A DNA stretch of 64,000 nt, taken from positions 3,193,001 through 3,257,000 of the forward strand of contig NZ_CP019511.1 in NCBI RefSeq assembly GCF_002002925.1, written 5' to 3'. The DNA is from Sphingomonas sp. LM7 (GTDB lineage Bacteria; Pseudomonadota; Alphaproteobacteria; Sphingomonadales; Sphingomonadaceae). The notes beneath the pieces are model-generated. The model worked only from the letters and a program-made list of their open reading frames with translations, did not search any database and was not told where the DNA came from. Of the stretch, positions 27,025 through 31,688 are shown piece by piece. A program made the translations under genes and the position numbers. The number at the start of each line of letters is the position of its first letter. Within the stretch, counting starts at the first letter, position 1.

Positions 27025-28002
<978 letters not shown>

Positions 28003-28004
28003 GG

Positions 28005-29279
28005 TTACAGGTCCTTGGCCAGGCGTACGCCGGTGAACTGCCAGCGCTGGTGCGGATAGAAGAAATTGCGGTAGCTCGCGCGGACATGCCCGCGCGGCGT
28101 GGCGCAGCTGCCGCCGCGCAACACGAACTGCCCGCTCATGAACTTGCCGTTATATTCGCCGACTGCGCCCTCCGCAGTGCGGAAGCCCGGATAGGGGCGA
28201 TAGGCGCTGCCGGTCCATTCCCAGACGTCGCCGAAGAATGCCGGCCCGCCGGTGGAAGGGCGCGGTTCGACCGCGCCGGCGGCGTCAAGCTGGTTGCCGC
28301 CGTTCGGATCGTGGCTGCTCGCCGCAGCTTCCCATTCAAATTCGGTGGGCAGCCGCGCGCCGGCCCAGCTGGCATAGGCGTCGGCTTCGAACAGGCTGAC
28401 ATGGGTGACCGGTGCGGCGGGGTCGATCGGGCGGCGGCCGTCCAGCCCGAAACGAGTCCAGATGCCGTCGCGCTGCTCCCAATAGAGCGGCGCCGTGACG
28501 CCTTCGGCCTGCACCCACGCCCAACCGTCGGCGAGCCAGTGCCGCGGCTCGCGATAGCCGCCATCGGCTACGAACGCGGCCCATTCGCCATTGGTGACGG
28601 TACGGTCGGCGAGCGCATGCGGGTGGAGCAGTTCGCTATGCCGCGGGCTTTCGCAATCGAAGGCAAATCCGGTTGACGCGCCTGACAAGATATCATGGCC
28701 GATCTCGACGACGCCCGCGCGCCCTTCGATCCAGTCGATCGGGCCGGGCATGGCGACCGGGACCTTGGGAGAGCCCGGCCAAATGGCTGGTTCCAGCGGG
28801 TTTATCGAGAAATGGTGGAGAATGTCGGTAAGCAGTAGTTCCTGATGCTGCTCCTCGTGATGGCAGCCCAGCGCAACCAGTTCCTGCACCTCTGCGGGCA
28901 GGCCGGGGAGCGCTGCCGTCAACGCCATGTCGACCGACTCGCGCCAGGCGAGGATCTTGAGCAGCGACGGCTGCGACAGCATGCCGCGGCGCGCGCGAGC
29001 ATGACGGGCGCCTTCGGCCTCGTAATAGCTGTTGAACAGGAACGGCCAGCGTTCGTCGAACAGCCGATAGCCGGGAACGTGATCGCGCAGCACGAAAGTC
29101 TCGAAGAACCATGTCGTGTGCGCAAGATGCCATTTGGCAGGCGAAGCATCGTCCATCGACTGGATCGTCGCATCGGCATCGGACAAAGTGGCCACGATCG
29201 CGACGCTGAGAGCCCGAACGCGCCCGAAGCGCGCCGCGAGCGGACAGGAAGCTGGGGCCGGACCAGTTTCTGTTCGCAT
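28005..29279 (-). CDS. egtB: Ergothioneine biosynthesis sulfoxide synthase EgtB
   Basis: Non-haem iron enzyme that joins hercynine to a cysteine-type thiol with O2, forming the sulfoxide intermediate of ergothioneine. The N-terminal DinB-like domain supplies the iron triad: His54 in LAHTTWF, and His141 and His145 in the HHEEQHQE motif. The C-terminal FGE-sulfatase domain (about residues 190-424) shows [37 protein letters not shown] and the closing [13 protein letters not shown]. Length (424 aa) is usual. With no egtA or egtC in view, direct use of cysteine is plausible but not decided. It lies 51 bp downstream of the adenosyltransferase gene on the same strand. Confidence 0.94.
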
Positions 29280-30713: not shown

Positions 30714-31688
30714 CTACGCCTTTGCCGGCGCGAAGCCAACTGGAAGCCGCCCTGCGCGCAAACGATCGGCAAGCGCCCGCCCGTCCTCGCCGGCTACGCG
30801 CATCGCCTCGAGCGTCGGCGCCCCGTGGCGCTTGGCGAGGCGCTGGCCGTCAGGGCCGGTGAGCAGCGCGTGATGGCGATATTCGGGCGTGGGCAGGCCG
30901 AGCAGCGCCTGGAGCAGGCGGTGGACATGCGTTGCCCCGAACAAGTCTAGCCCGCGGACAACATGGGTGATGCCCTGCCCGGCGTCGTCGATGGTGACGG
31001 CGAGGTGGTAGGAGGCAGGGGCATCCTTGCGGGCGAGGATGACGTCGCCGTGGGAGCGGGGATCGGCGCGGATCCAGCCTGCGAGGGTATCGTGCCACGT
31101 CAATTCCCTTTCCCAATGGGAGAGGGAGGGAGTCGACGCGGTCGGCGGAAGGGTGAGGGCAGGTGGGGGTGTCGCGCTGCCCTCACCCTTCCCACCGCCT
31201 GACGGCGGCGGACCCCTTCCCGCTCCCGATGGGAGAGGGAGATTTGCCAGCGCCTTCTCCATATCCAGCCGCCAGCTGTGCGGGCGGGCGAGGTCCGGCG
31301 CTGCAAGCCCGCGGCAGGTCCCTGGATATAGCGCTCCCTCCGGCCCATGCGGTGCTGACAGGATCGCGGCAATATCGGCGCGGGTGCAGAAACAGGGGTA
31401 GAGCAGCCCCATGCCGCGCAGTTGGTCGAGCGCGGCTTCGTACAGGTCCAGCCGCTGAGACTGGAAGGTGACTTCGCCGTCCCAACCCAGCCCGAGCCAT
31501 TCGAGATCGCGCAGGATCGCCTCGACATGTTCGGGGCGGCTGCGGGTGCCGTCGATATCCTCGATGCGCAGGCTGAAGCGGCCGCCCAGCGCGCGCGCAA
31601 AATCATGCGCCTGGATTGCTGAGAAGGCGTGACCCAGATGGAGGCGCCCCGTCGGGCTCGGCGCGAATCGCGTGTGGATAACCATCAA
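30714..31688 (-). CDS. gluQ: Glutamyl-Q tRNA(Asp) synthetase with an in-frame repeat insertion
   Basis: Activates glutamate with ATP and attaches it to queuosine-34 of tRNA-Asp. It has the GluRS-like catalytic core without anticodon-binding domain: FAPSPTGRLHLGHA (HIGH-type, residues 8-21), RIEDIDGTRSRPEH, the zinc-site FCTR, ITHVVRGLDLF and the KMSKS-like RLAKRHGAPT. Length is 324 aa against roughly 290-300 expected. The excess is a low-complexity, Pro/Gly-rich stretch at about residues 150-196 (SGAGRGPPPSGGGKGEG ... STPSLSHWERE) encoded by the palindromic element at 31104-31241. The insert sits between the SWRLD strand and LTWHD, near the zinc-binding insert. The frame remains open, so the enzyme is probably still made. 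Confidence 0.92.
   Translation of the reverse strand: MMVIHTRFAPSPTGRLHLGHAFSAIQAHDFARALGGRFSLRIEDIDGTRSRPEHVEAILRDLEWLGLGWDGEVTFQSQRLDLYEAALDQLRGMGLLYPCFCTRADIAAILSAPHGPEGALYPGTCRGLAAPDLARPHSWRLDMEKALANLPLPSGAGRGPPPSGGGKGEGSATPPPALTLPPTASTPSLSHWERELTWHDTLAGWIRADPRSHGDVILARKDAPASYHLAVTIDDAGQGITHVVRGLDLFGATHVHRLLQALLGLPTPEYRHHALLTGPDGQRLAKRHGAPTLEAMRVAGEDGRALADRLRAGRLPVGFAPAKA
31104..31241. repeat. Palindromic repeat element inserted in frame inside gluQ
   Basis: A 138 bp element (46 codons). Its ends are direct near-repeats of 25 bp (31104-31128 and 31217-31241, 22 of 25 identical), each containing a small hairpin of the form TCCC-rat-GGGA. Its centre is a perfect 14 bp inverted repeat (31149-31162 with 31177-31190, AAGGGTGAGGGCAG and its complement) around a 14 nt loop. 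The length is a multiple of three and no stop codon occurs in the gluQ frame. This resembles REP-type elements tolerated inside coding genes, as known for Rickettsia palindromic elements. Confidence 0.8.

What the first reader, a model, noticed from the sequence alone, without database searches (positions are those of the whole stretch)
31104..31241. Palindromic repeat element inserted in frame inside gluQ
A 138 bp element with 25 bp near-direct terminal repeats and a perfect 14 bp internal inverted repeat lies inside the GluQ coding frame, adding about 46 low-complexity residues between two conserved blocks. Its length is a multiple of three and it introduces no stop. In-frame repeat insertion of this kind is established for Rickettsia palindromic elements; I know of no description in gluQ of sphingomonads. 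The site is next to the zinc-binding insert, so the enzyme may tolerate a surface loop or may be impaired.
Basis: partly seen in the sequence, partly recalled or inferred. Interest (0 to 1): 0.72.

Follow-up and report, generated by a model that had tools for sequence, protein, structure and literature searches.

The report
Reused repeat landing loop in gluQ
A palindromic DNA repeat sits in frame inside a tRNA-modifying enzyme gene of a Sphingomonas-type bacterium, and some related species carry other repeats in the same loop of the enzyme, apparently without losing the gene.

Summary
Window 31103-31241 is a palindromic repeat of about 138 bp, in frame in a full-length gluQ (30714-31688, minus strand). 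The genome matches this family ("A") at 22 places, gluQ included, some of them partial; one other is in frame in ileS. The larger finding lies outside the window. I read the gluQ loop in 194 of 201 genomes of the genus; 29 carry a repeat-like insert at this loop, in four groups (A, B, C, E), A in both orientations. 28 of 29 are in frame and none of the 194 loops has a stop. One genome of another sphingomonad genus and one Rhizobium have inserts there too. Elsewhere the copies' lengths are not tied to three, so the frame probably reflects selection on the gene. dN/dS is as low with the insert as without, and the model shows a disordered loop, so GluQ is probably working. Intragenic palindromic repeats are known (Rickettsia RPEs; REPs in several phyla, including tRNA synthetases of sphingomonads). 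The addition is one loop filled by different repeat families across a genus, in gluQ and again in ileS. How the elements move, and whether repeated arrival or local exchange explains the exact reuse, is open.

The parts
30714..31688 (-). gluQ (tRNA glutamyl-Q(34) synthetase, GluQRS), 324 codons from a TTG; the ATG one codon on is the likelier start
31103..31241 (-). family-A palindromic repeat element inside the gluQ frame (about 46 codons)
31104..31128 (.). outer hairpin / terminal repeat, copy 1
31217..31241 (.). outer hairpin / terminal repeat, copy 2 (88% identical to copy 1)
31147..31192 (.). central stem: 16-nt perfect inverted repeat with 14-nt loop
   Evidence: two-sided pair changes at its loop end

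Best explanation
The segment is a copy of a dispersed, non-coding, REP/RPE-like palindromic repeat (family A) that entered gluQ. It is kept because it landed, in frame and without a stop, in a loop between the strand ending at WRLD and the strand beginning at xWHD, which can hold about 45 disordered residues without loss of function. The same loop has been filled by different repeat families in Sphingomonas relatives. Shown: the repeat family and its copies, same-site inserts of sequence-distinct groups, the frame, purifying selection on the rest of the gene, and a disordered loop in the model. Inferred: that the segment is translated, that the enzyme is active, and that reuse comes from a permissive loop plus element activity, perhaps helped by one-hairpin remnants left by earlier elements. 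Not known: what moves the elements.
For: Family A at 22 places in this genome, gluQ included (34 matches; 40 of 58 candidates scored, some matches partial). At E 1e-6 family A is found in 35 of 42 and B in 37 of 42 genomes searched (20 candidates scored per genome). Same-site inserts in 29 of 194 gluQ genes: A 8 (one reversed), B 15, C 3, E 3. In frame in 28 of 29, no stop in any of 194 loops. Median dN/dS 0.165 inserted, 0.178 others. Model: residues 152-188 pLDDT under 50, fold otherwise that of GluQRS/GluRS. Elsewhere in GluQ, indels of 8 aa or more in 2 of 194, one of them the rest of an insert at this loop. Another A copy is in frame in ileS of this genome (TIGR00392 760.5 bits, cut-off 621.4).
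Against: One insert (G088) is out of frame. That genome's ileS match is also split between two frames, at the ileS repeat loop, which suggests sequencing trouble at hairpins in an 88%-complete genome but could be real. All 15 B inserts begin at nearly the same place, nearly all in the same frame, and B insert identity tracks gluQ divergence in part (r 0.50, 105 pairs), so many B cases may descend from one insertion. The C group is held together by short matches (74% over 54 nt; 22 identical nt). No direct evidence of translation or activity; no mobilising enzyme found.
Confidence: 0.82

Rival explanations
1. One old insertion (B-like) in the ancestor of the clade, later altered by ectopic gene conversion or template switching between repeat copies, gives the A/B mosaic; few true insertions at this site.
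For: B inserts share frame and near-identical boundaries; B insert identity correlates with third-position identity, r 0.50; one-hairpin loops exist at the site (L032; several proteins); weak A-B similarity (best 74% over 85 nt, part of it gluQ flank).
Against: C and E inserts have different flanks and no hit to A or B at E 1e-2; A occurs in both orientations; A insert identity does not track gluQ divergence (r 0.10, 28 pairs); inserts in another genus (G228) and in Rhizobium setariae (L070) lie outside the clade; presence/absence needs at least 9 changes on the 194-genome tree.
Confidence: 0.25
2. gluQ is a decaying pseudogene in inserted strains, so anything may accumulate there.
For: GluQ is dispensable in E. 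coli (recalled); one frame-broken case, G088.
Against: 28 of 29 in frame, no stops in the loops; median dN/dS 0.165; conserved motifs invariant in a 61-sequence alignment that includes inserted forms; the same pattern in ileS (essential, recalled).
Confidence: 0.05
3. The insert is a functional domestication: a selected disordered segment or mRNA hairpin that tunes GluQ.
For: Very stable RNA fold; 13 of 15 genomes in the small subtree around the window carry an insert.
Against: The encoded peptides differ between families, orientations and frames, so no peptide function is conserved; insert-free relatives are common.
Confidence: 0.08

Closest known systems
Rickettsia palindromic elements (RPE; Ogata et al. 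2000, 2002: not read; as summarised in PMC10969869, passages read)
   Same: About 150-bp palindromic repeats of several families, inserted in frame in genes.
   Different: Another group of bacteria; no sequence comparison with RPEs was made here; the same loop of one gene is filled by different families in different species; most copies examined here lie outside recognised genes.
GTAG- and CGTC-tagged REPs, including intragenic ones (Di Nocera et al. 2013, PMC3733652; section 15 and passages read)
   Same: Dispersed palindromes, some inside ORFs; the paper names tRNA synthetases of X. oryzae, E. 'lithoralis' and S. alaskensis, and two Xanthomonas recB genes with different REPs at about the same site. 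Two family-C inserts here (G140, G110) hold a unit beginning CGTC.
   Different: Family A shows neither tag at its ends; the reuse here involves four groups of repeats in 29 genomes in gluQ, and again in ileS.
REPIN/RAYT systems (PMC3116915, search listing only)
   Same: Short non-autonomous palindromes.
   Different: No Y1_Tnp (PF01797) match in this genome.
Bacterial MITEs such as those of Coxiella (PMC5896051, search listings only)
   Same: Small palindromic or inverted-repeat elements, some inside ORFs.
   Different: No target-site duplication or parent transposase recognised here.

Membership tests
Protein-coding palindromic elements of the RPE kind | Dispersed palindromic repeat with many copies in the genome | tested here: met
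   22 places, some partial; palindromic fold
Protein-coding palindromic elements of the RPE kind | In-frame insertion in otherwise conserved genes | tested here: met
   gluQ and ileS
Protein-coding palindromic elements of the RPE kind | Sequence homology to RPE families of Rickettsia | not tested
   No RPE sequence was fetched; membership by descent is not claimed
GTAG/CGTC REP superfamilies | GTAG or CGTC tag at one end | tested here: not met
   Family A ends read AAAT-CTCCC...GGGA-ATT (other copies). Two family-C inserts do contain a unit beginning CGTC
REPIN/RAYT | A RAYT (Y1_Tnp) transposase in the genome | tested here: not met
   0 of 1 for PF01797 in the own genome; the control rings in 5 of 14 genomes. 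A lost or transient RAYT is not excluded
MITE | Target-site duplication | tested here: inconclusive
   Flanks listed; no clear duplication, and the AATT-like ends seem to belong to the palindrome
GluQRS (host protein) | Score above a curated GluQRS cut-off | tested here: met
   NF004315.1, 323.8 against 250; below the cut-offs of the other GluQRS models listed
GluQRS (host protein) | Glutamyl-queuosine synthesis | not testable with these tools
   Needs an assay

The most novel reading that the evidence does not exclude
The gluQ loop (and the ileS loop) is a site-locked landing pad: each palindromic element that decays leaves a one-hairpin remnant in frame, and that remnant acts as a docking site, by homology or hairpin-specific insertion, for the next element of the same or another family. 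The same codons are thus emptied and refilled over genus-level time, and a housekeeping enzyme carries a constantly replaced disordered segment.
Probability: 0.25. Interest if true: 0.68.

Novelty: new variant of a known kind. Interest (0 to 1): 0.52.

Why it matters
It gives a natural replicated experiment: one enzyme loop into which evolution has put different repeats, in different orientations, with the gene kept under selection. That makes the question of how palindromic repeats enter and persist in coding sequence testable in bacteria that are isolated and grown, whereas the classic case is in obligate intracellular Rickettsia. It also warns that such loops inflate GluQ and IleS alignments in sphingomonads.

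Tried and rejected
Rfam: 19 matches, all far below their gathering scores (microRNA families and one IRES), driven by the palindrome; rejected. RAYT transposase: no match. A second transposase family tried late (PF01610) had no match either; transposases were not surveyed widely. The idea that the element is adapted to coding was tested and rejected: lengths are not multiples of three more often than chance and open frames are not clearly enriched (seven of ten own-genome copies below expectation, three above; the 29 gluQ inserts 3.6 against 3.2 expected). Single linkage of inserts merged A with B, and put G228 with them, through weak hits; the best A-B hit is 74% over 85 nt and includes about 20 nt of gluQ flank. 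I keep A and B as two families, but a distant link is not excluded; 4 of 310 shuffled inserts also gave a hit at that threshold. One search used wrong coordinates (a C-terminal piece of gluQ) and serves only as a single-copy control. The first loop reader failed on 55 of 194 loci and was replaced by the tblastn version. Literature: the listings of searches showed me no paper on inserts in gluQ of sphingomonads; the library holds only open-licence papers, only the top rows were seen, and Ogata 2002 was not held.

Left out of the census: 201 genomes searched, 194 loops read. Of the other 7, six had only weak matches (best E 6.4e-17 to 1.5e-24), which I took to be GltX without looking, and one (G179) had only the C-terminal part on its contig. 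Three loops not in frame with the tblastn parts: G088 is counted as inserted, G026 and G111 have no insert. G046 (54-nt loop, 82.5% over 40 nt to a B insert) was not counted as inserted.

Full report

It is a dispersed repeat. In the 4.16-Mb genome the element gives 34 matches at 22 distinct places, gluQ included (40 of 58 candidates scored; several matches cover only 30-65 nt). At 20 of these places I looked for reading frames of 130 aa or more running through the element: 23 such frames at 13 places. Apart from gluQ's own, all 22 were tested against NCBIfam or Pfam. Two matched a family. One is isoleucyl-tRNA synthetase (TIGR00392, 760.5 bits, cut-off 621.4) with the element in frame in its middle. 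The other is a DUF559 frame (106.1 bits) in which the element lies upstream of the domain (residues about 65-86, domain 112-214), so it may lie before the true start. So two of the 20 places are clearly in frame in recognised genes, gluQ and ileS.

The same loop in relatives. I read the gluQ loop in 194 of 201 genomes of the genus. Between the two blocks used, 138 of 194 have 11 residues; the window has 54. In 29 genomes the loop measures 96 nt or more and is repeat-like. By blastn these are group A (8 genomes, one in reverse orientation), B (15), C (3, joined by short matches only) and E (3). A and B are themselves dispersed: matched in 35 of 42 and 37 of 42 genomes searched. That C and E are multi-copy in their genomes was not tested; two C inserts contain a unit beginning CGTC, as CGTC-tagged REPs do. 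Two proteins (P0069, P0080) carry a further type that I recognise as repeat-like from memory only. Of 110 homologous proteins whose loop could be parsed (120 listed of 7999 found; ordered by likeness to the query, so biased), 66 have long loops (59-77 residues by that measure) and 44 short ones (26-42). Some short ones look like a single hairpin of family A (for example P0052, P0053, P0058, P0093); L032 shows this at DNA level.

Outside the genus. The family search drew 199 genomes, three of them of the own genus. I read the loop in 50 genomes of other genera. One (G228) has a 147-nt loop whose ends resemble family A (91% over 43 nt to the G119 insert). The remaining genomes were judged, if listed, only by match span. 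Among the 72 loci outside Sphingomonas, Rhizobium setariae (L070) has a 228-nt loop; that its peptide looks like a Rhizobium repeat is recalled, and its copy number was not tested.

How many events. On the 194-genome gluQ tree (loop left out) presence/absence needs at least 9 changes and group identity at least 17. In the 40-genome clade around the window (22 inserted) the figures are 7 and 14; with weak branches collapsed, 7 and 16. These include losses and switches. Among inserted genomes alone, group changes are close to what shuffled labels give (8 against a mean of 9.2 in the clade; 11 against 12.7 on the large tree), so group identity is barely inherited. For A, insert identity is unrelated to third-position identity of gluQ (r 0.10, 28 pairs); for B it is partly related (r 0.50, 105 pairs); the three E inserts (r 1.0, 3 pairs) look inherited. 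B inserts also share boundary and, nearly all, frame, so B may be one or a few old insertions. C and E have other flanks and no hit to A or B.

Why in frame. In the loops 28 of 29 inserts keep the frame and none has a stop. Own-genome copies do not on the whole have more open frames than their composition predicts. So the elements are not built for coding; selection on gluQ probably picks the harmless ones. The one frame-broken case, G088, comes from a genome whose ileS match also changes frame, at the ileS repeat loop; error at hairpins is likely there, but a real break is not excluded.

Does GluQ still work? Median dN/dS outside the loop to the nearest relative is 0.165 (29 inserted genomes, range 0.111-0.39) and 0.178 (165 others); pairs overlap and are not independent. 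Conserved motifs are invariant in a 61-sequence alignment with both kinds. An AlphaFold2 model (mean pLDDT 77.2, pTM 0.78) gives pLDDT under 50 to residues 152-188, between helix 142-147 and strand 196-199. This fits a disordered surface loop. Translation and activity are not shown.

ileS is a second such loop. In 35 genomes searched, 34 matched and 30 loci were given. From these, 27 ileS loops were cut out. Of the 27, 13 match a gluQ insert by blastn at E 1e-4 or better: A 3, C 3, E-like 7; the C and E-like matches are weak (64-77% identity). The peptides are the same kind of low-complexity segments.

How it probably works. Palindromic repeats, moved by an unknown activity (no PF01797 match here), land now and then in genes; most such landings are presumably removed by selection. 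Two loops, in gluQ and ileS, tolerate about 45 extra disordered residues and so collect them. Deletion within the palindrome may then leave in-frame remnants. Whether remnants attract new elements is the open and most interesting point: the near-identical boundaries of A and B in gluQ suggest more precision than mere tolerance, or exchange in place.

What is known. A review (PMC10969869, passages) describes Rickettsia palindromic elements in frame in many genes. Di Nocera et al. (PMC3733652, section 15) list intragenic REPs in several phyla, among them tRNA synthetases of X. oryzae, E. 'lithoralis' and S. alaskensis (which synthetases is in a supplement I did not see), and note two Xanthomonas recB genes with different REPs at about the same site. 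So the kind is known, and even the class of target genes. New here, as far as the listings I saw show, are gluQ as a target and the filling of one loop by several groups of repeats across a genus.

Noticed in passing
L013:1501-1623 (genome C1:3486520-3486642): A second family-A copy lies in frame inside ileS of the same genome; relatives carry other repeats in the same ileS loop.
   Followed up: yes
L017:1501-1563 (genome C1:3384194-3384256): A partial family-A copy lies in frame upstream of a DUF559 domain; it may be before the real start codon.
   Followed up: partly
L070:3001-4041: Rhizobium setariae GluQ has a 228-nt loop at the same site with a repeat-like peptide; copy number in that genome was not tested.
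   Followed up: partly
L394 (G228): A genome of another Sphingomonadaceae genus has an in-frame, A-like insert at the same gluQ site.
   Followed up: partly
L138 / L040 (G088): gluQ is out of frame at the insert, and ileS changes frame at its own repeat loop, in this one-contig, 88% complete genome.
   Followed up: partly
IleS residues about 300-355, loci L305-L334: A second IleS stretch is highly variable in length and sequence between relatives; not repeat-like at a glance.
   Followed up: no
window 27025-29279 (-): Two adjacent genes look, from memory of the families, like an EgtD/EgtB-type pair; not checked by any search.
   Followed up: no
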